Shown: piece by piece, positions 11,077-20,351 of the stretch
Layout of the letters: every line of letters begins with the position of its first letter
Position numbering within the stretch: the first letter of the stretch is position 1
DNA from: Planctomycetota bacterium
GTDB lineage: Bacteria > Planctomycetota > Planctomycetia > Pirellulales > Pirellulaceae
Length of the DNA stretch: 36,912 nt
Assembly: GCA_024277285.1 (NCBI GenBank)
Contig: JAJRVM010000046.1
Coordinates: 1-36,912 of the forward strand
Direction of reading: 5' to 3'
Translations under genes and position numbers: made by a program
The notes under the pieces: generated by a model
Database searches by the model: none
Seen by the model: only the letters and a program-made list of their open reading frames with translations
Told to the model about the DNA's origin: nothing

Positions 11077-11289
11077 GGCAAAGAACATCGTCGGCAGAAA
11101 GAGCGCGCCGCAGCACACGCTTGTTCTCTTGCCAGTCATCTTCTTTTGCCCGCCCAAAAGGAGCCGTCGAGACGTCGCCCACTGCGAATCAGCAGCGAAA
11201 GAGGGCAAAGAACATCGCGGGCAGAAAGAGCGCCGCAGCACACGCTTGTTCTCTTACCAGTCATCTTCTTTTGCCCGCCCAAAAGGAGC
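11077..11289. repeat. Two direct copies of an 86-88 bp palindromic element
   Basis: Copy one spans 11077-11164 and copy two 11204-11289. They differ by a few substitutions and a small indel. Each starts GGCAAAGAACATCG, has AGCACACGCTTGTTCTCTT in the middle and ends TTCTTTTGCCCGCCCAAAAG plus GAGC. The ends are imperfect reverse complements, so each copy can fold on itself. They resemble the 569-668 inverted repeat. The pair fills most of the 420-base spacer between the secreted protein and the next gene, where I see no other feature. Confidence 0.85.
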
Positions 11290-11326: not shown

Positions 11327-11863
11327 TCACCCATCGAGGCCCAAGTCGCGATCAACACCCGCAGCCATTTCCCATTCGCGGCGTACTTCGCGCAGGCCGT
11401 AAGCACACATCTCGAACTCGTGGCCCAGACGTTCGAGCACATCGGCGGGCACGGCTGTTTCATCGGCGGTGGGAATCGAGCTGGCAATCAAGTAGGCGTG
11501 TCGGCCGAGCCGGCAGTAATGGGTGAAGCAATCGAGATCGGCCGCCGACTTCGTACGCTGCAACTTCTCGGGAAAGAGCCCGGCCCAGAAGATAGTAAAA
11601 TCACCGATGCGCCGGTGAATACGTCGTCGGGCGATGCCGAATCGCGTCTCCGCCGCTTTCACCAAGAGTCCCAGTTCCTGAAGTGCATGGCCGCGTGAAG
11701 CTCGTACCAGCGGCATCTGATCGGCGCGAACGCATCGAACCAACAGCGTGCTGAGGTAATCGATCAATGGCGGGTCGACGATCCCCAATTTGACGGCGAA
11801 CGTCTGCTCGGCCATCCCGGCAAAGAATCGCTGTAACATCGTCATCGGCTGTTGCGTGGTCAT
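11327..11863 (-). CDS. Small helical protein downstream of the pafA-like gene
   Basis: This protein has 178 residues, is predicted mostly helical, and has no signal peptide or membrane segment. A strong SD (GGAGGTG) sits seven bases before the ATG, so it is probably real. I do not recognise the family. Its middle (LGRHAYLIASSI) and C-terminal half (LERLGHEFEMCAYGLREVRREWE) look like helices of a compact bundle. It lies 320 bases after the PafA-like gene on the same strand, the last same-strand gene of the tagging cluster. Membership is possible but the gap suggests its own promoter. Confidence 0.6.
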   Translation of the reverse strand: MTTQQPMTMLQRFFAGMAEQTFAVKLGIVDPPLIDYLSTLLVRCVRADQMPLVRASRGHALQELGLLVKAAETRFGIARRRIHRRIGDFTIFWAGLFPEKLQRTKSAADLDCFTHYCRLGRHAYLIASSIPTADETAVPADVLERLGHEFEMCAYGLREVRREWEMAAGVDRDLGLDG

Positions 11864-12183: not shown

Positions 12184-14676
12184 CTAGAGTCCCCAAAACG
12201 AATCGGTTTCGCCCGGCAGAGTGCGACCGGCACACCAGAGTCGCCATTGTTCACGAATGCGATAGGCCAGGGGGCAGGAGGCGAGCGCTGGCCGGTCTCG
12301 ACAGATTGCCAAAATTCGCTCGTGCGACTCGCGCGGCGCGTGTTCGTCTCCGTCGACGACGGCGCGCGAGCGGATACGTTCCATCAGCATTCGCGTACGT
12401 GCTTCGCCAACGACGTTCGCATCATCGCGTTGCGTTCGCAAGGCTATGGCAAGTAATTCCCAAGCGTCCTCGAAATCACCTTTGCGCGCCATGACCTTGG
12501 CGCGCTGCGTCAATGTCAGGTCCGCGATATCGCCCTTGTAATTCTCTCGCATCTGAATCTCGTGCGCTTCGTCCAGCAGCGCGAGTGCTTCCTCGAACCG
12601 CCCCAACCAGCGCGCCACGTCGGCTTTTTCGGTGAGAAAACGCGCGTGGACGCGCGGATGCAATTCATCGATCAACTCGCGGCGCAAGCTATCGTGAAAG
12701 GCATCCCACGCTTCAAAGGGACGGCTGAAACAGAGCAGGTCGAAGGCGTGTGTGCTGCGAATCATGGCGACAAAGCGAAGATTGGCGCCGAGTGTGTTGT
12801 CGAGCTGGTCTAGCCCCAGCTGGCACCACGTGTGGTATTCATGGCCAGGCCGCAGTCCCTGAAAGCGGTGGACCTGGACATAGTCGCTGATCATGTCCAA
12901 TGACACCGGTTGTCCCCGGTAGATCGGATCGAGACACTCGGCACCGTCGATATACCCACGGCGTGCTTGGATCCACGCCAGGAACCGATCGCTGTCATGT
13001 GCCGGGTCGTCTGTCCCCACGTCGAGCCACGTCCGCGAGGCGCGCATAAATCGGTGTGCCGTTTCATACTCACCACGATCATAACGTGAAATCGCGTACG
13101 CAAGAGCTCGTTCCATCATTGGGGCATTTCCAGTCGAGCGCGGTTCGAGGCCCGACAACGTGCGCCATTTTTCTTCGCTTGCGAACGGGTCTTCCAAGTC
13201 CAGCACGCGAGGTTTACGCAAGTCCCACACTCCATTCCACTCGCACGCGCCGGGTGTATCTTGCCGAGCGAGCTCTTGGATCACGCGTCCACGCAAACGC
13301 GCTCGTCCCGTACTCGGCGGCTCGACCATCGCCTGCCGGACCCCGTCCACTCCGGGCACCTGATGGTCCAGCCAGCCTTCCGCGTCGAGCGAATTGAAGA
13401 TCCCCTGACTGCCCAGCTGACCAAAGCGGGCATCGAGCTCAAACAGCTCCTGCCGCAATGCCACCACCAACTCCAATTCGCCCCAGTCGAGCTCTGATTC
13501 GGAATCGAGCTTGCCGCGCATGCTGCGCAGCCATGCGAGACGCGAAGCCGAAGGCAGCTCTTGGTAATGAGTCCGCTCATCCACGCAACGCGCCAACCGA
13601 GTAAAGGGCTTGTTCCATTGCTCCAACCGCTCCCACGGCAGCCCCCGACCTGTTGCATAGTTTTGGAACAATTCGAGTTTGACCGCCCAATCGAGACTCC
13701 GCTGCACAGCACCAACGCCTTGCTGCAACCGATCCAGAGTCTCTTCCCACAATCGCAGGCAGTCTGGCAGCCAATCGTTGATAGGCCCTGGCACTCGCAG
13801 ACGCTTCGCCTTGTCAAGCAACTGGCGTTGCATATCGATCGCGGTCAGCCGTCGCCCTTGGTTCGTCAAGACGTTCGCGGTCAGCGTTGGGTCCCGAGCA
13901 ATATTGCGCATCGCGCGTACCGGATTCACCAACTGTAAGCCTGCGCCGGGTGACAATCCAGCTTGTACCATGGCAACAACCACGGCGGTCGTCGCCATTT
14001 TCAACCATTGTGCCCGGATCGACGAGACGTTTTCGCCGCAGATCACGTGCAGACGATGGTACCCCGCCGAGTTCAGCGGCTCGTCCTTCGTATTGAAGAT
14101 TCCTCGTTCCGATTGCGTATTCTCGGAAATGGTCTTTTTCAGACATGCCACTCGTGGTGAAATGAGAAATTCGGTGCCAAGTGAACGGTTGTCGAACCCA
14201 CCCGCACCGGTATAGACAATCCGGCTCACCGCATGCGGTACAAAGCCGCTGGCGATATTCTGGTCGCCGCGATGACTGTACGATTCATGACAAGCCCACG
14301 CATTGGCGTTCCATCCATAACTCACATTGCAGCGGCTCAAGATGATCTGCGTGACCAGCGGATCTTCGTCGATCAATGCGGCGCACACTTCCAGCAGGAT
14401 CTCTTCTCCGGCGCGCGTGTACCGGCAGGCATCCGTCGGGGTAGTGACTTCGGGAGTGGTGATCTCCGGCTTGCCACAGTCAAGATAAAGCCGTGCACCA
14501 TTGCCGAGAAAAATCCCATTCGAGTCGCGGCCCGGAAGGTGAACGAGGCGTTTGCCGGCCACGTCCATAAACTTCCGTAACACCCGTCCCGGACTCACAC
14601 GCTGCATGCTGGCATCGAGCGCCGAAAACGACACTTCAAATTCAAGGCCGAATAAAGGCCGAATGGTTTCGGGCAT
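12184..14676 (-). CDS. PafA-like Pup ligase with TPR-like C-terminal extension
   Basis: PafA joins the C-terminal glutamate of Pup to substrate lysines using ATP, on a glutamine-synthetase-like fold. Residues 10-505 match it: GLEFEV (10-15) for the metal-binding GxExE strand, NGARLYLDCGKPE (59-71) with the catalytic Asp66, HES at 130-132, NTKDEP (195-200) and YHRLHVICG. The C-terminal ligase domain has PPSTGRARLRG near 453-463. PafA normally ends at 450-480 residues; here about 325 more follow. They are helical with TPR-like pairs, for example WLGRFEEALALLDEA and ARKGDFEDAWELLAIAL. The extension may recruit substrates or partners. The NGARLYLD region without a Dop-loop-like insert favours PafA over Dop. 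SD is weak. The gene follows the Pup-like gene by 209 bases. Confidence 0.85.
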   Translation of the reverse strand: MPETIRPLFGLEFEVSFSALDASMQRVSPGRVLRKFMDVAGKRLVHLPGRDSNGIFLGNGARLYLDCGKPEITTPEVTTPTDACRYTRAGEEILLEVCAALIDEDPLVTQIILSRCNVSYGWNANAWACHESYSHRGDQNIASGFVPHAVSRIVYTGAGGFDNRSLGTEFLISPRVACLKKTISENTQSERGIFNTKDEPLNSAGYHRLHVICGENVSSIRAQWLKMATTAVVVAMVQAGLSPGAGLQLVNPVRAMRNIARDPTLTANVLTNQGRRLTAIDMQRQLLDKAKRLRVPGPINDWLPDCLRLWEETLDRLQQGVGAVQRSLDWAVKLELFQNYATGRGLPWERLEQWNKPFTRLARCVDERTHYQELPSASRLAWLRSMRGKLDSESELDWGELELVVALRQELFELDARFGQLGSQGIFNSLDAEGWLDHQVPGVDGVRQAMVEPPSTGRARLRGRVIQELARQDTPGACEWNGVWDLRKPRVLDLEDPFASEEKWRTLSGLEPRSTGNAPMMERALAYAISRYDRGEYETAHRFMRASRTWLDVGTDDPAHDSDRFLAWIQARRGYIDGAECLDPIYRGQPVSLDMISDYVQVHRFQGLRPGHEYHTWCQLGLDQLDNTLGANLRFVAMIRSTHAFDLLCFSRPFEAWDAFHDSLRRELIDELHPRVHARFLTEKADVARWLGRFEEALALLDEAHEIQMRENYKGDIADLTLTQRAKVMARKGDFEDAWELLAIALRTQRDDANVVGEARTRMLMERIRSRAVVDGDEHAPRESHERILAICRDRPALASCPLAYRIREQWRLWCAGRTLPGETDSFWGL

Positions 14677-14742
14677 GGCGCTCGTCCCACAAAAGGAATC
14701 ACAGGTCGCATCAACATCGCTGTCAGACCCAACACGGCGAAA

Positions 14743-14774
14743 CCTGGGCTGAGCTCGCTAGAGCTCAGCCCAGG
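14743..14774. promoter_or_regulatory. Perfect 14-bp stem, 4-nt loop hairpin
   Basis: CCTGGGCTGAGCTC (14743-14756) and its exact reverse complement (14761-14774) flank GCTA. It lies in the 209-base spacer between the Pup-like gene and the PafA-like gene. On the minus strand it is followed by only TTTCG, so it is a weak terminator at best. It could lower read-through into pafA, protect the pup mRNA 3' end, or simply be an interspersed palindrome. Confidence 0.7.
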
Positions 14775-14885
14775 GAAACAAGTCGATCGCCAGCGTCGGT
14801 ACGGTTGAAACCGGTGTGGCCCAATTCTCGACGACTCAGTCGACGACCGTTCTGGCCACAACGGTTTTGGCCACGGCAGCTCCGA

Positions 14886-15068
14886 CTATTGGCCATTCTC
14901 CTGTTCAATCTGCTGATTGAACGCCTCGGAATTCGAGCTGAGCAGGTTGTTGATAAAATCGTCAACTACACGAAAGTAATCGCGTCCTTCGCTGCCGCCA
15001 GCGCCGGCACTTTCGATCGGATCGGCCCTCACGCCAACCTCTTCACGCCGTCGTTGCACTTCCAACAT
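14886..15068 (-). CDS. Pup-like small protein modifier ending in NGQ
   Basis: This 60-residue protein has an N-terminal half rich in Arg, Glu and Gly and likely disordered, then a helix-forming C-terminus. Its last 19 residues, LLSSNSEAFNQQIEQENGQ, line up without gaps with the actinobacterial Pup end (LEENAEDFVRSYVQKGGQ type). Shared are the Leu pair, Asn, Glu, Phe, the Gln before the tail and the final Gly-Gln. A terminal Gln needs deamidation to Glu by Dop before ligation, and a Dop-like gene is next upstream. It contains no lysine, so chains on itself are not possible. GAGGAGG sits seven bases before the ATG. Position between dop-like and pafA-like genes strengthens the call. It could alternatively be grouped with UBact-type modifiers. 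Confidence 0.88.
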   Translation of the reverse strand: MLEVQRRREEVGVRADPIESAGAGGSEGRDYFRVVDDFINNLLSSNSEAFNQQIEQENGQ

Positions 15069-15116
15069 TTCACGCCCTCCTCAAGTGATAAGGTCCTAAA
15101 CAACACACACAAAAAA

Positions 15117-15138
15117 CGTAATCGTTCACGCACTTTGA
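15117..15138. repeat. Copy of the dispersed ACCGTTCACG-type motif
   Basis: CGTAATCGTTCACGCACTTT followed by GA differs at three positions or so from the copy at 256-277. It lies about 50 bases upstream of the Pup-like start codon, within its probable promoter or leader. Confidence 0.6.
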
Positions 15139-15264
15139 GCCGCAAATTAAGCAAGCCGCGTCGTGACGCGAGCTCACCAGATCGGCGGCGCAATGGACAT
15201 TTTGTAACTGTTTAGCCATCTGAAGTGAGACGTGCACTCGAGTTCATTTTCCCTCGGTCGACCC

Positions 15265-15560
15265 CCACCGCCTTGTGCGGTGGAGGATTGGTAGGTTGCC
15301 CGTGACGTCCCATCCCCCCCACATCCACGGCCCCCTTCCCTCCCCGCCGCCGAAGGCGGCGGGGAGGGAAGGGGGGAGAGTAGCTGGCATCGCGGGTAGC
15401 TCACCAGCCGTATTCACCCATGGGACAAGCCCATGGGAGTCTCTTGAAAGCGACATTACTTCATTCGGCTAAACTGTTACGACATTTTCACGTCCGACCG
15501 ACGGCAAAACCGTCGGGTTGCAATCGCTGACCAGTCGGGCTCCCACACCGGGACGAGCCC
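15265..15560. repeat. Array of five different GC-rich hairpins
   Basis: The 530-base spacer between the Dop-like and Pup-like genes holds: CCACCGC CTTGT GCGGTGG (15265-15283); a perfect 21-bp stem with GAA loop (15331-15351 with 15355-15375); CCCATGGG ACAAG CCCATGGG (15417-15437); CCGACGG CAAAA CCGTCGG (15498-15516); and GGGCTC...GAGCCC (15537-15560). None is followed by a T-run on the minus strand. The stems do not resemble one another. I see no gene here. They could insulate the modifier gene from upstream transcription or be insertions of palindromic repeats. Confidence 0.85.
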
Positions 15561-15600
15561 AGTCGGAGCGCTGTTCGTGATCAGCGTCTATTGGCGGTGT

Positions 15601-17190
15601 TTATTGGTGGTTATCAGCGTCCGGCACCGTGACGTCCACAAGATCACGCAACTGCGCGATCAACTGGTCCAAGGGCAGATTCTGGCGAAACAGATGCTGC
15701 GTCATGGCTTTCGTCCACCGGCGTGGGTCTTGCATCCAGAGGTTTTGATAGGTTGCCAGCCCATGGCATCCCGGCAGTCGAAACGTAATCCGATCCCAAT
15801 TGATAAAATTGACACACTCGGCACCCGCGGCACGCAGCAGCATGGCACGTGTCCACGCGCGTGTATCCTCAGGTGGCTCGTACACAAACCGTTCGATCTG
15901 GCTGGGTGTCACCAGTTGCTCGACCAAGCCGGCGCGCTGGTAGCTCCAATAGAGCCCGTCGGTCGGATCAAGGCTGCTGTAAAAATGATCCAGTTGTTTC
16001 AGTTCCGGCGACTCCCAATCCAGGTGCGGATGATTGGCAAGCGCCCGTTCCAGGGAGACTCGTTTGAGGACCCAATCGAGCGATCCGGCGAGTGCCTCAA
16101 AATCCCGCGCGGCCAACTTATCGAGCACGCATCCCCAAGCGTCGATAATCTTCATGGCGTCGGGAACGAACCCGTCGCAGCCTCCCTGCTGCACGAAACG
16201 GCGGGCCTGTTCGTGCAGCATCTGTTGATGCTGCACGGCGGTCACTCTGTTACCGTCGGCCAGGCGTGCGTGACAATGCAGTTCCGGATCGTGGCTCCAG
16301 GCAATCACCGCGTCAACGGGATCGTCAAGGATCAGGCCAACATCAACTTGCTCAGCTTCGATCATCGCCAGGACAATTTGCAAAACCCCGACCTTCAGGT
16401 AGCAAGCAACATGGCACAGATTGCTGTCGTAGAAGATCACATGCAACCGGGCCAGATCGTTTGCGACGACATCCGCTCCCGAGACCGGGCCACACAGCGG
16501 CTCATCGCGCGAGTTAACGATCGGTCGTCGGTACGTCGTCTGCGGCGCGCGAACGGTCTCAAAAAAATCCGCCCGTTGGGACAATTGATAATCGACCTTG
16601 GGAGCCCCATTTTCGGCGCCGACTTTTCCTTGCCCAGTGTAGACAATGCTCGATGCCTGATGCGCGGCCAGGAACAGCAAGTACTGGATCTTGCGATCGA
16701 ACAGGTTGTCGAAGGCCTTACGCGTGACCAATACGTTGCAATGGCTACCGTACGAGTGATCCAAACCGTCGCTATTGTTCGCGAACGTGCGCAGCTGCTG
16801 GTCGACCGGGAGCAGTTCGTTCGCATCGAGCATCGCGCAGCGTGCAATGCGTAACGTCGCGTGCCAGGCGGCCACGAAGTCGATCGCACTCGTCACTTCC
16901 GGGATTGGAAACTCGGCATGGTCCAGATCGATATAGGCACAACCGCCATTACAAGCAAAAAACTTACGCAGCGAATCCTGCGCTAGTCGAATATGACTGC
17001 GTGCAACACCAGGGACTTGAGCGAGCAAGAGTCTTGATGCAGCGTGGCCGGACGGCGCACGCGCGCCGTCAATGAAATTCCCAAACTCGATGTCGGCCCC
17101 AAGCAGCTTCTCGACCTGCCGGCCGACGACGAGCGGGGATGGAAACGAGGTCGCCGGATTGCCGGCGGCTTGGTCTTCGTATACTACCAC
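15601..17190 (-). CDS. Dop-like deamidase/depupylase
   Basis: Dop deamidates the C-terminal Gln of Pup to Glu and removes Pup from substrates. The 529 residues fit Dop (about 500). Visible motifs: LGADIEFG (30-37) for the metal-binding strand, with Asp in place of the first Glu; CNGGCAYIDLDHAEF (80-94) with the catalytic Asp88; NNSDG and SYGSH (138-150); YTGQGKVG; YQLSQRADFFE (201-211); and VNSRDEP (225-231). The last two are typical of Dop. A Cys151 follows SYGSH where actinobacterial Dop has Glu (HEN). Start is a GTG one base after the upstream stop, with GAGG in the upstream gene's last codons, so translation is probably coupled to the ARC-like gene. Confidence 0.88.
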   Translation of the reverse strand: MVVYEDQAAGNPATSFPSPLVVGRQVEKLLGADIEFGNFIDGARAPSGHAASRLLLAQVPGVARSHIRLAQDSLRKFFACNGGCAYIDLDHAEFPIPEVTSAIDFVAAWHATLRIARCAMLDANELLPVDQQLRTFANNSDGLDHSYGSHCNVLVTRKAFDNLFDRKIQYLLFLAAHQASSIVYTGQGKVGAENGAPKVDYQLSQRADFFETVRAPQTTYRRPIVNSRDEPLCGPVSGADVVANDLARLHVIFYDSNLCHVACYLKVGVLQIVLAMIEAEQVDVGLILDDPVDAVIAWSHDPELHCHARLADGNRVTAVQHQQMLHEQARRFVQQGGCDGFVPDAMKIIDAWGCVLDKLAARDFEALAGSLDWVLKRVSLERALANHPHLDWESPELKQLDHFYSSLDPTDGLYWSYQRAGLVEQLVTPSQIERFVYEPPEDTRAWTRAMLLRAAGAECVNFINWDRITFRLPGCHGLATYQNLWMQDPRRWTKAMTQHLFRQNLPLDQLIAQLRDLVDVTVPDADNHQ

Positions 17191-17191
17191 G

Positions 17192-18049
17192 CTACACCTC
17201 GCTCTCTGGTAAGTCCCAATTCGAGACGTCGTCCTGGTTCAACAGCGCATCGGACCGATCGACGCGACGCGCGACAGGTTCGGCGCTGGTGAGTTCGAGG
17301 TCCTGCGGCAGGTCGTGCAGATAGGCACGGGCATTGTGCACGGTCAGCAGAGCCTCCTTGATGGCGTCCAATGCAGCGTACTGACCACCTACCGCGTCGA
17401 CACCCACATCGGGCACCTCGTCCAAAAAATGCCGTTGCGTCACGTTGCGGTCAACCTTTTCCAGCGCCATGAAGGTGTCGCGATTCCAACGCACCAGGTC
17501 ACCTTCTTTGAGCAGAACGTCTTCAAGACGCTGGCCCACTTCGACCACGATTTCGTCGTCGCGCCAACGCAATATCATGCGATCCTCGCTGGTATGCCTT
17601 ACGAACTCAGCTGTTTCGCCGACCGGCGATGTCCCCCACGAAGCGCGCTGCACCAGCAAATTCAGATCGCCATTCAAGAACACATCGTCCCCGCGGCAGA
17701 GCAGCTTCGCGTCCACATCGCGAGCCAATGTGACCAGGCGAGAGGCGCCATTGAAACAGACGACCGCTTGCTGGCTGTCGGGTAAACATTGTCGGAATAC
17801 CGCCACCGGCCAAGGAGGACGCGTGAGGCGTTCGTGCTCGCCATGCAATTCCATCAGGGCTTCCTGCGCTTCGCGCAACCCTTGATTCGTTCGATCTATG
17901 TGCTTAATCAGCTCGCTGTCGATAAAGTCGAACGCGTCCGGCGCCGCGCCACGCACCTCGCGCAATAGCGCCAGCCGCTCCTCCAAACGCGGCGCATCCT
18001 CGCCCATATCCACCGCGCGCCGCATCTTCCTGGCCAGTTCCGATAACAT
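17192..18049 (-). CDS. Mpa/ARC-like coiled-coil and OB protein lacking the AAA+ domain
   Basis: Mpa/ARC is the hexameric ATPase that binds Pup by its coiled coils and feeds tagged proteins to the proteasome. This 285-residue protein matches its front half. A coiled coil runs over about 40-77 and ends ERLTRPPWPVAVF, like the family's RLxxPPSxYGVF. OB-type strands cover about 80-200, with DDVFLNGDLNLL for the family's LNEAL segment. LDEVPDVGVDAVGG (209-222) then matches the linker opening the AAA+ domain. There it departs: no Walker A, Walker B or arginine finger follows, only 63 residues of polar tail to a proper stop. No frameshift is seen, as the Dop-like gene begins one base later. It may be a motor-less Pup receptor. 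GGGAGAG precedes the ATG. Confidence 0.82.
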   Translation of the reverse strand: MLSELARKMRRAVDMGEDAPRLEERLALLREVRGAAPDAFDFIDSELIKHIDRTNQGLREAQEALMELHGEHERLTRPPWPVAVFRQCLPDSQQAVVCFNGASRLVTLARDVDAKLLCRGDDVFLNGDLNLLVQRASWGTSPVGETAEFVRHTSEDRMILRWRDDEIVVEVGQRLEDVLLKEGDLVRWNRDTFMALEKVDRNVTQRHFLDEVPDVGVDAVGGQYAALDAIKEALLTVHNARAYLHDLPQDLELTSAEPVARRVDRSDALLNQDDVSNWDLPESEV

Positions 18050-18259
18050 CGTTTATCTCTCCCACACCGCTCTGTTCCAAAGCCACTGAGACCGGCAGGT
18101 GTCAGACCGCCAGTCGCTCCACTCACACGCTGTCAGCACTCCCTGGGCAGAAAACAGAAAACCACGACCGTAATACTCACGAACGGCTATCGCACACTGT
18201 CCCCTGCCACAAACAACTTGCGCGACACACCACTCCAGCCCCACGTTTGTGATGTTCAT

Positions 18260-18388
18260 GCGATCGGCCGCACGGCAAGCCTCTGGGGCGCAGCCTGCCG
18301 CTTGCCTTGTGCGGGCCGGCCGATCGCAAATCGGTGCGTGGCCGGTTTCCGCGGAGCAACCATTCGGCCCCGCAGGAAACCGCCACGC
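18260..18388 (-). promoter_or_regulatory. Two long imperfect hairpins upstream of the ARC-like gene
   Basis: The first hairpin has arms GCGATCGGCCG...GGCAAGC (18260-18280) and GCTTGCC...CGGCCGATCGC (18300-18327). The second has arms GCGTGGCCGGTTTCC (18336-18350) and GGAAACCGCCACGC (18375-18388), with one unpaired C. Both lie in the 351-base spacer between the ubiquitin-like gene and the ARC-like gene and could form a structured leader, processing site or terminator without a T-run. No gene is seen in the spacer. Confidence 0.6.
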
Positions 18389-18400
18389 GAACGGCATGGC

Positions 18401-18691
18401 CTAGCCAGCCTGAATATTGGGCTGCAAGACAATGTGATCGTTCGGCAATAACACATCGCCAACGATCTCGCTGCCGTGCAAGTGACGGCCTTCACTGTCA
18501 CTGCGGACGTGGTAAGACAACGAGCGTCCTTCCGCGTCCCGTTCGGGTAGGCCCATCTTGGCGGCTAGCCCTTGGACCAATTCCGCCACCGTCATATCAG
18601 CCGGGATGCCAGCGGCACGAACCTGCTTATGGCCCGCAACATCCCCGACGCTCAATGCGAACGCCTCCCTCCAACGTGTTCTTTTCAACAT
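18401..18691 (-). CDS. Ubiquitin-like beta-grasp protein (YukD/Ubl type)
   Basis: This 96-residue protein reads as a beta-grasp fold: two N-terminal strands, the helix TVAELVQGLAAKMGL, a strand around SLSYHVRSD, then LHGSEIVGDVLLPNDHIVLQP, the usual L-x(n)-L-GD-hydrophobic ending of ubiquitin-like proteins. It ends in Ala-Gly, so the terminal Gly is exposed with no processing needed. I chose the ATG at 18691 because the fold starts there; an upstream ATG at 18745 would overlap the previous gene by 16 bases. It sits in the operon of the zinc protein and the 307-aa protein and upstream of the Pup-type genes. Whether it is conjugated or only structural is unknown; no E1 or E2 enzyme is in the window. 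Confidence 0.7.
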   Translation of the reverse strand: MLKRTRWREAFALSVGDVAGHKQVRAAGIPADMTVAELVQGLAAKMGLPERDAEGRSLSYHVRSDSEGRHLHGSEIVGDVLLPNDHIVLQPNIQAG

Positions 18692-18729
18692 CTGCTCGAA
18701 ACCCTTTCTCAAGAAACAACCGACCGAAC

Positions 18730-19653
18730 TCACCGCGAAGAACACCCTCGCAGCAACAGATAGCTATCCGCAATCGACCGGTCGCTCAATGCTTGCAGTT
18801 CGCACGCACTCAAGCGACAGGCAATGGACAGGGCGGAGAGGCCACGGTGAAACAGGTTTTCCGCGGGAAGCCGTGGCCACGCCACTTCCCAGCGGTATTC
18901 GTGTTCGTTGCCGACAGATAACACCACCGTTCGTGCCATGCGCACCACGCGTGCGGCGGTCAGCAGGAACGTTGCTACGGCGTGACGCGATTTGGCCGAC
19001 GCGTCGGCCGGGATCGCCAAGGTCGTGCTCAGTCGAAACTCGTGTTCGCCGACCCCGTGGGCATGAGCCTGACAGAACTGCCCAGGCGTATCGAGCGTAA
19101 TCGCCAATTGCCCGCTGCGGCGCTCGTGATAGGGCCAGCCCGTGGCGTGGCACAGCGAGCGCGTCAACTCGCCAACGTCGTCGTCGGCAGTCAGCGGCGC
19201 ATGCAATCCGGCAAGTGCACTACCATCGCGGGCGGCCCAATCGCTCGGCGCAGTCGCGCGGGTTGAACAGAACGAGTCAAATAATTCTTCAACTTCAAAC
19301 ACCATTCGACTGGTGTCGGTGTCGTGCGCGTGCAATAGCATATCGGCGGCCAGGAACGTGCCCCGGCGGCGAGAATTGATGCAATAGTGCATTCCAGGCG
19401 GCAGAAAAGCGTTCCCTTCCAGCAGCCCCAACGCGCGGCGGGGGCCGGGCAGCACATGCGCACGCCGGCAGGGCAGGGGGGTCTCGAAATGAAGCCACGA
19501 ACCGCCGACCGATGCATGCACCTTCGTTGCGCCGAGTCCGCGACCGGGCAAAGCCCAGGCGTGCGGCGCGACGTCTTCGATCGAACCCGCGCGCCGACGC
19601 AAGGCATCGCGCACCGCCGCCAGGCTCTCTGGTTGCAAATCGCGGAGCGTCAC
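18730..19653 (-). CDS. Protein of unknown family in the Ubl operon
   Basis: This protein has 307 residues and no signal peptide. I do not recognise a family. The C-terminal ~140 residues alternate strands and helices (LCHATGWPYHERRSGQLAI, then FRLSTTLAIPADASAKS, then HAVATFLLTAARVVRMARTV). This suggests a type III chaperone or YbjN-like alpha/beta fold, but only as a guess. The start is GTG and overlaps the upstream stop by four bases (GTGA). Its SD, AAGGAGGTGAT, is a full-length match to the 16S anti-SD, so this gene is probably strongly translated and coupled to the zinc-protein gene. The downstream Ubl gene starts 38 bases after its stop. Confidence 0.65.
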   Translation of the reverse strand: MTLRDLQPESLAAVRDALRRRAGSIEDVAPHAWALPGRGLGATKVHASVGGSWLHFETPLPCRRAHVLPGPRRALGLLEGNAFLPPGMHYCINSRRRGTFLAADMLLHAHDTDTSRMVFEVEELFDSFCSTRATAPSDWAARDGSALAGLHAPLTADDDVGELTRSLCHATGWPYHERRSGQLAITLDTPGQFCQAHAHGVGEHEFRLSTTLAIPADASAKSRHAVATFLLTAARVVRMARTVVLSVGNEHEYRWEVAWPRLPAENLFHRGLSALSIACRLSACELQALSDRSIADSYLLLRGCSSR

Positions 19654-20351
19654 GCATCACCTCCTTCGCCGCCTGCATTGCCGGCTTCGCGTTGCGACTT
19701 GGGATGGCGCAGCTGCTCGGCCTGGCGCACGGATACAACATCTCCCAAAGACAACCCAACACGCGCCAACGATCGTGCCGCGCCGCCCGTACGCAGGACG
19801 CTTGCATCAAGCCATTCCAACGCATGGAATCCGGATACCGCCATCGGCGCGGCACACTTCGGGCACGCCACGGGCACGCGTGCCAGCACGCGGTCAAGCC
19901 AAAGCGATTGGGCACTCGCCTCACCGCACACAGTGCATACCAACCGAGTCACGAACTGCTGACGCGCAACGCGGATCGCCACCGGTGCGGCATCAGCGCG
20001 ACCCACAAGCGACCGCAAGAATGCCTCCATCGTCAGTCGTTCGACCGACACAGGATGCGGCTCGATTTCGACACGACGAAGCTGTACGGCACCCACGTGT
20101 TCGTGGCCTGAGCGACCTGTATCTACTCGCCTGGCACCTTCGCGATTCGTACTCGCCCTGCTGGCCAAAGGGGCTGCCAACTCCTGGACCGGCCCCGCAC
20201 CATGTGGGTCCAATGCCTCGTTCTCCGCCCAAGAATTGGCAGCTTGTGGTGATGCGGCCAGGGCCAGCGTCGGGGCCAACCAAAACGAATCACCGACAAG
20301 AGGCTGGTGGCACCATTGCCCTTTGCTTGACTGAAACCAAATGTGTGCCAT
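19650..20351 (-). CDS. Zinc-binding protein resembling an E1-enzyme C-terminal region
   Basis: This 233-residue protein is the first gene of the tagging cluster. Cys139/Cys142 (CTVC) and Cys163/Cys166 (CPKC) form a zinc site. After it, SLARVGLSLGDVVSVR resembles the ending of ThiF/E1-like proteins associated with bacterial ubiquitin-like modifiers, where a (L)A(x)LG(I/L)PxGD(V/I) segment closes the chain. No adenylation domain (GxGxxG) is present, so it cannot activate a modifier alone. The N-terminal ~90 residues are low complexity. The ATG at 20351 has GAGGAGAG eight bases upstream, better than one nine codons earlier. The E1 link is tentative; it could be an unrelated zinc-ribbon adaptor. 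Confidence 0.5.
   Translation of the reverse strand: MAHIWFQSSKGQWCHQPLVGDSFWLAPTLALAASPQAANSWAENEALDPHGAGPVQELAAPLASRASTNREGARRVDTGRSGHEHVGAVQLRRVEIEPHPVSVERLTMEAFLRSLVGRADAAPVAIRVARQQFVTRLVCTVCGEASAQSLWLDRVLARVPVACPKCAAPMAVSGFHALEWLDASVLRTGGAARSLARVGLSLGDVVSVRQAEQLRHPKSQREAGNAGGEGGDA

What the first reader, a model, noticed from the sequence alone, without database searches (positions are those of the whole stretch)
12184..20351. Pupylation-type tagging cluster in a planctomycete-like genome, joined to a ubiquitin-like operon
Seven same-strand genes include recognisable counterparts of Pup, Dop, PafA and the front of Mpa/ARC, plus a beta-grasp Ubl and an E1-C-terminus-like zinc protein. Pupylation and Ubl conjugation are normally separate systems. 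Their linkage here, with close or overlapping genes within each half, suggests a hybrid tagging pathway. Seen: motifs and gene order. Known: Pup/Dop/PafA/Mpa roles in Actinobacteria and related systems elsewhere. Inferred: that the two halves work together.
Basis: partly seen in the sequence, partly recalled or inferred. Interest (0 to 1): 0.95.

Follow-up and report, generated by a model that had tools for sequence, protein, structure and literature searches.

The report
Reduced copy of dual-tagging operon
A planctomycete-like DNA stretch carries a cut-down copy of a gene cluster, found whole at seventeen other bacterial loci, that puts a ubiquitin-like tagging kit beside a Pup tagging kit in a locus without proteasome genes; the two kits likely feed one shared protein-unfolding motor.

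Summary
Confirmed: seven same-strand genes at 12184-20351 encode PafA(+TPR), Pup, Dop, an ARC/Mpa relative, a Ubl, a linker protein U and an E1 C-terminal half. In relatives they belong to one operon, RING-E1-E2-U-Ubl-JAB-ARC-Dop-Pup-PafA, with all ten genes at 17 of 33 related stretches (32 genomes) in eight phyla; many others are cut by contig ends, three lack the Ubl side with 7.8 kb or more in view. All 60 canonical Pup loci have proteasome genes and none of the six Ubl-side genes (34 show over 5 kb upstream); the related stretches show no proteasome gene, and their ARC lacks the docking tail. The two ligase-family proteins form their own clades; which is ligase and which depupylase rests on gene order. 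The window copy is reduced: no E1 adenylation domain, RING, E2 or JAB, and ARC has lost its AAA module in frame. So the linkage is real and widespread, but this copy cannot run the Ubl cascade or unfold proteins by itself. Likely mechanism: two tags converging on one proteasome-free unfoldase, this lineage keeping pupylation. Function is untested; a key 2011 paper could not be read, so priority is uncertain.

The parts
19650..20351 (-). E1 C-terminal half (zinc ribbon CxxC/CxxC and the GDVVSV terminal domain), 233 aa, behind an N-terminus that resembles the start of the relatives' RING gene by eye; RING domain and ThiF adenylation domain missing
   Evidence: relatives' E1 model without the window 2.1e-20, positions 232-353 of 360; alignment; no ThiF hit, no RING hit; N-terminus MAHIWF beside L107 MAHLWV (by eye only); one other relative in the protein database, a 401-aa protein with a ThiF domain
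18730..19653 (-). U, 307 aa: conserved protein between E2 and Ubl in relatives; model shows two tandem CesT/YbjN-type folds
18401..18745 (-). Ubl, YukD-like; open frame from GTG 18745, likely start ATG 18691 (96 aa); ends ..QPNIQAG
   Evidence: relatives' Ubl model without the window 3.1e-32; AG end shared by 18 of 19 aligned rows
18053..18400 (-). spacer where relatives carry JAB; no gene recognised
   Evidence: flat codon-position G+C; no significant hit to the six models in any frame
17192..18049 (-). ARC/Mpa relative without AAA module, 285 aa: coiled coil and OB domains, then the ARC C-terminal tail in the same frame
   Evidence: PF16450 2.2e-9, no AAA hit; relatives' ARC model 8.2e-68 in two pieces, positions 24-253 and 533-571 of 573; alignment; the two other relatives found have AAA
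15601..17190 (-). Dop-type protein (Pup_ligase family), 529 aa, GADIEF signature
   Evidence: PF03136 3.3e-90; depupylase structures 8.3e-62; in the hybrid Dop clade, sister to P0004, 77% identical
14886..15068 (-). Pup, 60 aa, ends ENGQ
   Evidence: 5.7e-8 to a model of 18 Pups from related loci, first of 726 frames; lies between Dop and PafA
12184..14676 (-). PafA-type protein (Pup_ligase family) with C-terminal TPR extension, 830 aa, GLEFEV signature
   Evidence: PF03136 2.6e-76 and TPR_12 4.9e-7; in the hybrid PafA clade

Best explanation
The window holds a cut-down copy of a conserved proteasome-free operon that combines a RING-E1-E2-U-Ubl-JAB cassette with an ARC-Dop-Pup-PafA cassette, in which both tags likely mark proteins for one shared ARC unfoldase. 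In intact loci the proposed cycle is: Dop deamidates Pup where it ends in Gln, PafA ligates it to lysine and Dop removes it; E1, E2 and the RING protein attach the Ubl through its C-terminal glycine, with U likely presenting substrates; ARC threads tagged proteins, and JAB, encoded next to ARC, strips the Ubl, as Rpn11 does beside the eukaryotic ATPase ring (analogy from general knowledge). With no docking tail and no proteasome genes in the locus, the outcome would be remodelling or release rather than degradation, as described for ARC and pupylated ferritin in Corynebacterium glutamicum. In the window lineage the E1 adenylation domain, E2, JAB and the ARC AAA module are missing; what remains would be reversible pupylation with an ATPase-free ARC stub as a Pup reader, and a Ubl that can be conjugated only if another E1 and E2 act in trans. 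Shown: gene content, order, clades, missing domains, motifs. Inferred: every functional step, including which of the two ligase-family proteins is ligase and which depupylase.
For: All six Ubl-side genes at 17 of 33 hybrid-type stretches, with ARC, Dop and PafA at all 17 and a Pup recognised beside Dop at all 17 (11 by tail pattern, 6 more by model at 1.2e-7 to 1.7e-17). RING-E1-E2-U-Ubl-JAB-ARC run in one direction at all 17, with gaps or overlaps of -29 to 195 bases between the six genes (starts chosen by script). The 17 lie in eight phyla by title or tree label (Gemmatimonadota, Verrucomicrobiota, Omnitrophota, Myxococcota, Hydrogenedentota, Latescibacterota, Acidobacteriota, Planctomycetota). 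Exclusion: 60 of 60 canonical loci have a prc hit and 0 of 60 any of the six genes, 34 of them with over 5 kb visible upstream; no prc hit at any hybrid-type stretch and none of significance in the whole window. ARC ends in a GQYL-like tail in 50 of 52 canonical frames and 0 of 28 hybrid-type frames. Tree of 177 rows: hybrid Dop (40 rows, support 100), hybrid PafA (30, 100), canonical PafA (47, 99), canonical Dop (60, 94). Enzymes in relatives look active: HPN-like motif and Cys in 19 of 19 E2, JAB motif in 21 of 21, ThiF in 18 of 19 E1 rows, the window fragment being one of the 19; the 50 listed PDB matches of the E2 model are E2s or complexes with one. Sample of 267 acidobacterial genomes: hybrid-type Dop (by score) in 5, same-family E2 in 4 of these and in none of the other 262 at that score; one of the 4 (G016) was the known centre. 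C. glutamicum precedent: PMC12288473 and PMC8223512 (passages).
Against: Neither hybrid clade groups with canonical Dop or with canonical PafA in the tree, and both window proteins are nearer to depupylase than to ligase structures, so the roles rest on gene order; the hybrid Dop signature has Asp for Glu. Three hybrid-type stretches with 7.8 kb or more upstream of ARC have none of the six genes (L004, L110, L111), and other Ubl cassettes occur without Pup genes (L152-L158), so each half can stand alone. In three of the 17 loci PafA is on the opposite strand (L012, L018, L019), and the L018 Dop is split over two frames. One genome (G004) has both a hybrid locus and a proteasome locus, so its ARC might feed a proteasome. 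No experiment shows Ubl or Pup conjugates in such an organism. The window copy lacks the parts on which the dual mechanism depends.
Confidence: 0.5

Rival explanations
1. The window copy is a decaying operon: after loss of the Ubl cascade and the ARC ATPase the remaining genes have no function and are on their way out.
For: Losses at four places: RING/E1, E2, JAB, AAA; neither the shortened E1 nor the AAA-less ARC has a like relative among the hits in a 5.8-billion-protein database; two close relatives (P0002, P0003) have ARC proteins that look shortened.
Against: All seven frames are open, the ARC pieces are joined in frame, codon-position G+C bias is kept in the genes and absent in the spacer, Dop and PafA keep their signature motifs and the Ubl keeps its AG end.
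Confidence: 0.3
2. The two halves are neighbours without functional link, kept together by shared regulation or transfer as one island.
For: Pup-only stretches (L004, L110, L111) and Pup-free Ubl cassettes exist.
Against: Order conserved over eight phyla with overlapping genes; absence from all 60 proteasome-type loci (34 with over 5 kb upstream); a Ubl cassette also sits beside an ARC-like ATPase without Dop/PafA in L158.
Confidence: 0.1
3. The deletions in the window are assembly errors and the organism has an intact operon.
For: Single contig; no second copy of either junction among the hits; no genome is held for the window.
Against: Misassembly would have to hit four places and leave open frames throughout; a separate stretch (L105, G337) shows another reduction.
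Confidence: 0.05
4. The intact operon is an anti-phage defence system in which the Ubl (and perhaps Pup) tags phage proteins, like the Bil system (recalled).
For: In L010 the E1 matches PADLOC E1-E2 models (best 1.6e-11), the JAB matches JAB models (2.8e-6) and the ARC matches AAA models TRIP13 and IetA (9.3e-20, 6.5e-18); sporadic distribution.
Against: These hits are partial or generic; no PADLOC hit for the L010 RING, E2, U and Ubl or for the three window proteins tested; defence-island context was not tested.
Confidence: 0.08

Closest known systems
Canonical Pup-proteasome locus (actinobacteria and others: ARC-Dop-Pup-PrcB-PrcA-PafA)
   Same: ARC-Dop-Pup-PafA order, Pup_ligase enzymes, Pup tail, OB domains of ARC
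   Different: No prc hit, no GQYL-like tail, separate ligase-family clades, Asp in the Dop signature, Ubl cassette upstream
Bacterial E1-E2-RING-Ubl-JAB cassettes (Prok-RING_1 family; comparative genomics by Iyer, Burroughs and Aravind; Bil is a characterised cousin, recalled)
   Same: ThiF E1, E2 with HPN-like motif and Cys, RING-like zinc protein (Prok-RING_1 in 13 of 18 at E <= 0.01; below cut-off where shown), JAB, single-glycine Ubl
   Different: Linkage to ARC-Dop-Pup-PafA and an added tandem CesT-like protein U
Proteasome-free pupylation of Corynebacterium glutamicum (PMC12288473, PMC8223512, passages read)
   Same: ARC, Pup, PafA, Dop without proteasome core; non-degradative outcome
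   Different: No Ubl cassette in the passages read; PMC8223512 calls the missing proteasome genes a likely secondary loss within Actinobacteria
Plesiocystis/Rhodopirellula Pup loci of Iyer et al. 2008 (PMC2588565, parts 1 and 2 of 3 read)
   Same: Pup and Pup ligase in a planctomycete or deltaproteobacterium without linked proteasome genes
   Different: Those ligases carry four transmembrane segments and are linked to a membrane protein gene; no Ubl linkage is described in the parts read

Membership tests
Pup ligase/depupylase family (PF03136) | Pup_ligase domain over cut-off in both enzymes | tested here: met
   303.6 and 257.8 bits against cut-off 25
Pup ligase/depupylase family (PF03136) | GhExE signature | tested here: inconclusive
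   PafA has GLEFEV (met); Dop has GADIEF, Asp for the first Glu, as in 31 of 31 hybrid-type Dop frames with the motif
Pup ligase versus depupylase | orthology of each window protein to PafA or to Dop | tested here: inconclusive
   both hybrid clades lie outside the canonical Dop and PafA clades; both are nearer to depupylase structures
Pup | 50-90 aa, C-terminal G[EQ], gene beside PafA | tested here: met
   60 aa ending ENGQ between Dop and PafA; model hit 5.7e-8
Canonical Pup-proteasome locus | prcB and prcA in the locus | tested here: not met
   no significant prc match in the whole window (best 2.4) nor at hybrid-type stretches
Canonical Pup-proteasome locus | ARC with AAA module and GQYL-like C-terminus | tested here: not met
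   no AAA hit; ends DLPESEV
Hybrid RING-E1-E2-U-Ubl-JAB-ARC-Dop-Pup-PafA locus | Dop and PafA in the hybrid clades | tested here: met
   both window rows inside clades of support 100
Hybrid RING-E1-E2-U-Ubl-JAB-ARC-Dop-Pup-PafA locus | complete Ubl cascade (adenylating E1, E2, RING, JAB) | tested here: not met
   only E1 C-terminal part, U and Ubl found: a reduced derivative
Ubiquitin-conjugating enzyme (relatives' E2) | UBC fold and Cys after an HPN-like motif | tested here: met
   model pLDDT 89.1, the 50 listed PDB matches are E2s or complexes with one; motif 19 of 19
CesT/YbjN-type fold (U) | the fold, in tandem | tested here: met
CesT/YbjN-type fold (U) | binding of an unfolded partner | not testable with these tools
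   needs protein
Hybrid locus | covalent Pup and Ubl conjugates in the cell | not testable with these tools
   needs proteomics

The most novel reading that the evidence does not exclude
A bacterial dual-code machine: two chemically unrelated protein tags, a glycine-ended Ubl and a glutamate-ended Pup, are written by one operon and read by one proteasome-free ARC unfoldase with a JAB isopeptidase at its door, replacing the proteasome; and in this planctomycete lineage the motor was cut out in frame, turning a tag-and-unfold machine into an ATPase-free Pup signalling module.
Probability: 0.33. Interest if true: 0.95.

Novelty: new variant of a known kind. Interest (0 to 1): 0.85.

Why it matters
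Pupylation and ubiquitin-like conjugation are treated as separate inventions. A conserved operon that holds both, lacks proteasome genes and keeps one unfoldase would show that they can share a downstream machine, gives a bacterial model of a JAB enzyme beside an AAA ring, and makes the question of what pupylation does without a proteasome testable across several phyla. The reduced window copy is a natural deletion experiment: it says which parts can be missing while Dop, Pup and PafA stay.

Tried and rejected
Rejected: ORF 18053-18397 as a gene (its CFEM hit at 0.01 is taken as chance). Rejected: a non-Pup glutamine-synthetase family for Dop/PafA. Rejected: a 20S proteasome as hidden partner in most hybrid genomes: PF00227 hits in 13 of 17 genomes, but of 16 places classified one is 20S beta (G004), ten are HslV and five are far below the 20S cut-offs or unmatched; three of the 19 places were not classified (two in G004, a weak partial one in G008), and nearly all record titles say metagenome-assembled. 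Led nowhere: the first genome-contig scan with the single protein and the viral-contig scan; close relatives of the window Dop (60-77% identical) were not found in 392 genomes of the phylum (best 53%), 396 of the order (best 52%) or 241 of the family of the best TrpE match, so whether they share the deletions is open. No further gene recurs beside the operon in more than 3 of 27 stretches (BLASTP 1e-6). A strict glycine-loop pattern caught only 7 of 19 E1 rows; the ThiF profile was used instead. Walker A by a strict pattern: 21 of 28 hybrid-type ARC frames, at least three of the rest being cut pieces.

Mended on re-checking: the E-values came from models that had taken in the window rows, so they are replaced by those; Pup was first recognised at 11 of the 17 complete loci by tail pattern and at the other six by model; L014 and L110 are probably two pieces of one locus of G011, so 33 stretches stand for 32 genomes. 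Because neither hybrid clade is tied to canonical Dop or PafA, confidence in the mechanism was lowered from 0.55 to 0.50 and the decay rival raised to 0.30.

Literature: ten answered searches listed no paper whose title or abstract start describes the Pup-Ubl linkage; the library is open-licence only. The RING/treble-clef paper of Burroughs and colleagues (2011, recalled), the likeliest place for an earlier mention, is not held, and the UBact paper (recalled) was not seen.
Full report
WHAT IS THERE. On the minus strand of the window, between 20351 and 12184, seven open frames lie in one direction: a 233-aa zinc protein, a 307-aa protein (U), a Ubl, a 285-aa OB-domain protein, Dop, a 60-aa Pup and an 830-aa PafA with TPRs. 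Dop and PafA are Pup_ligase proteins (3.3e-90, 2.6e-76). The solved proteins closest in sequence to both are depupylases, so the labels Dop and PafA follow gene order and clade, not a proven role. Pup has no Pfam or significant PDB match, but a tail-anchored model of 18 Pups from related loci finds it first of 726 window frames (5.7e-8; next 0.86), and the model of 38 canonical Pups also ranks it first, without significance (1.1). Those 18 were picked by their tail pattern, so the model leans toward that pattern. The ORF at 18053-18397 is not counted as a gene.

THE OPERON ELSEWHERE. Fourteen of the 80 had a Ubl match by a single-sequence search. Taking L010 (Latescibacterota, complete chromosome) as seed, models for six upstream genes were built and run on all loci: RING (Prok-RING_1 8.4e-5, below cut-off), E1 (ThiF 5.2e-21), an E2-like protein, U, Ubl and JAB (Prok-JAB 2.6e-6), followed by full-length ARC, Dop, Pup and PafA. 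Five more complete loci came from genome searches of the planctomycete phylum (10 of 392 genomes with a Dop match) and of the order of the best TrpE match (4 of 396). In all, 33 hybrid-type stretches from 32 genomes were counted besides the window (L014 and L110 are probably two pieces of one locus): 17 have all six genes, 2 have five, 2 have three, 1 has two, 2 have one and 9 have none. At all 17 ARC, Dop and PafA are present, and a Pup is recognised beside Dop, at 11 by tail pattern and at 6 by model at 1.2e-7 to 1.7e-17. In L012, L018 and L019 PafA lies on the opposite strand, and the L018 Dop is split over two frames. Left out before the count: L091-L103 and L118-L121 (shorter copies of the same places, or single hits), L109 (same contig as L014), L114 (a PafA hit alone) and L081 (canonical). 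Many incomplete stretches are cut by contig ends; L004, L110 and L111 show 7.8 kb or more upstream of ARC and have none of the six genes there.

CONTRAST WITH CANONICAL LOCI. The other 60 of the 80 loci are of the actinobacterial/nitrospiral type. All 60 have a prc hit and none has any of the six genes; 34 show more than 5 kb upstream of ARC (or of Dop where no ARC frame was found, 8 loci), about the length of the whole cassette. Fifty of 52 ARC frames end in a GQYL-like tail; the exceptions are L037, with masked sequence near its end, and L050. No hybrid-type stretch has a prc hit, 0 of 28 hybrid-type ARC frames have the tail, and the whole window has no significant prc match. A tree of 177 Dop/PafA rows splits into hybrid Dop, hybrid PafA, canonical PafA and canonical Dop with support 100, 100, 99 and 94; several long branches inside the hybrid groups are uncertain, and neither hybrid group joins canonical Dop or canonical PafA. 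The window Dop is sister to P0004, and the window PafA groups with G619 and G788. Hybrid-type Dop has Asp in place of the first Glu of the signature (31 of 31 frames with the motif; 6 without it), while canonical Dop and PafA (106 of 106; 7 without) and hybrid PafA (28 of 28; 3 without) keep Glu. Iyer et al. 2008 called GhExE absolutely conserved (PMC2588565).

PROTEASOME IN THE GENOMES. PF00227 matched in 13 of 17 genomes, but the family includes HslV, as the E. coli control shows. Of 16 places classified, one is 20S beta (G004, in a second, canonical locus), ten are HslV and five are far below the 20S cut-offs or unmatched. Three places were left unclassified, two in G004 and a weak partial one in G008. 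So G004 aside, no genome of the 17 showed a 20S subunit among the places classified.

CO-OCCURRENCE TEST. In 267 acidobacterial genomes, same-family E2 (over 220 bits) occurs in 4 and hybrid-type Dop (over 570 bits) in 5; the 4 are among the 5. One of them (G016) was the known centre of the sample. Reading the places: G1064 has the full order; G1031 has it over two contigs; G1180 has E2-U-Ubl-JAB-ARC-Dop-PafA without a RING or E1 hit in 6.6 kb upstream; G1144 has ARC-Dop-PafA with only 0.2 kb upstream. Two further Dop genomes (G927, G978) are canonical with prc. Seven genomes have weaker E2 matches (37 to 83 bits) in other Ubl cassettes without a Dop hit; in one of these (L158, 8.8-kb contig) an E1-E2-U-Ubl-JAB cassette is followed by an AAA protein similar to ARC (3e-32) with no Dop/PafA in view. 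Each half can therefore stand alone, and ARC-like ATPases occur with either.

WHAT THE WINDOW LACKS. The zinc protein begins, by eye, like the RING gene (MAHIWF; L107 MAHLWV) and ends as the E1 C-terminal part (positions 232-353 of 360); the RING domain and the ThiF domain are absent. E2 is absent between E1 and U, and JAB is replaced by a 348-base spacer. ARC keeps coiled coil, OB domains and its C-terminal tail but lacks model positions 254-532, which hold the AAA module. No significant match to RING, E2, JAB or ThiF was found anywhere in the window. Neither shortened protein has a like relative among the hits; the length filter of that search would hide full-length ARC but not another short one. 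The frames are open and keep codon-position bias. Another planctomycete stretch (L105, G337) has RING and a 65-aa E1 stub next to Dop and PafA, a different reduction on a 5.7-kb contig.

HOW IT LIKELY WORKS. See Best explanation. The nearest experimental precedent is C. glutamicum, where ARC disassembles pupylated ferritin without a proteasome (PMC12288473 and PMC8223512, passages). In the window the ARC stub could bind Pup through its coiled coil (inference) but, without its ATPase, is not expected to unfold anything; Dop and PafA keep their signatures and could still cycle Pup. The Ubl would need E1 and E2 from elsewhere in a genome that is not held.

NOVELTY. Both halves are known kinds. 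The linkage, the absence of proteasome genes, the Asp signature and the in-frame loss of the ARC motor are new relative to what I could read. I saw parts 1 and 2 of PMC2588565, passages of PMC7947786, PMC1779556, PMC11354881, PMC8223512 and PMC12288473, a term search of the held part of PMC7203096 without a hit, and search listings for the rest. The 2011 paper on prokaryotic RING fingers (recalled) may already mention the linkage, so I rate it a new variant of a known kind.

Noticed in passing
hybrid-type Dop, e.g. window 15601-17190: The first Glu of the GhExE signature is Asp in 31 of 31 hybrid-type Dop frames with the motif, but Glu in their PafA partners and in canonical enzymes.
   Followed up: partly
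L006:4479-5603: The E1 of this deltaproteobacterial locus looks circularly permuted: C-terminal part first, ThiF N-terminal part last.
   Followed up: no
L158:1-5628 (G1155, Acidobacteria): E1-E2-U-Ubl-JAB followed by an ARC-like AAA protein, with no Dop or PafA hit on the 8.8-kb contig.
   Followed up: partly
L105:2539-3318 (G337): A second, different reduction in a planctomycete: RING gene and a 65-aa E1 stub directly beside Dop and PafA.
   Followed up: partly
G004 (L006 and L081): One genome holds both a hybrid locus and a canonical proteasome locus.
   Followed up: partly
window 15331-15375: Perfect inverted repeat with 21-base arms and a 3-base loop in the long Dop-Pup spacer.
   Followed up: no
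window 11327-11863: A 178-aa gene downstream of PafA has a relative downstream of PafA in a nitrospirial locus (L056, 4e-20).
   Followed up: no
window 11077-11289: Near-identical direct repeats of 63 and 30 bases, about 125 bases apart.
   Followed up: no
L007:13928-15160, L012:11965-13233, L013:3973-5175: A related protein of about 400 aa lies beside the operon in three stretches.
   Followed up: no
P0002, P0003: ARC proteins of two close relatives of the window (longest-contig lengths equal to those of Dop hits P0010 and P0014) look shortened, which may mean frameshifts or early decay of ARC in this lineage.
   Followed up: partly
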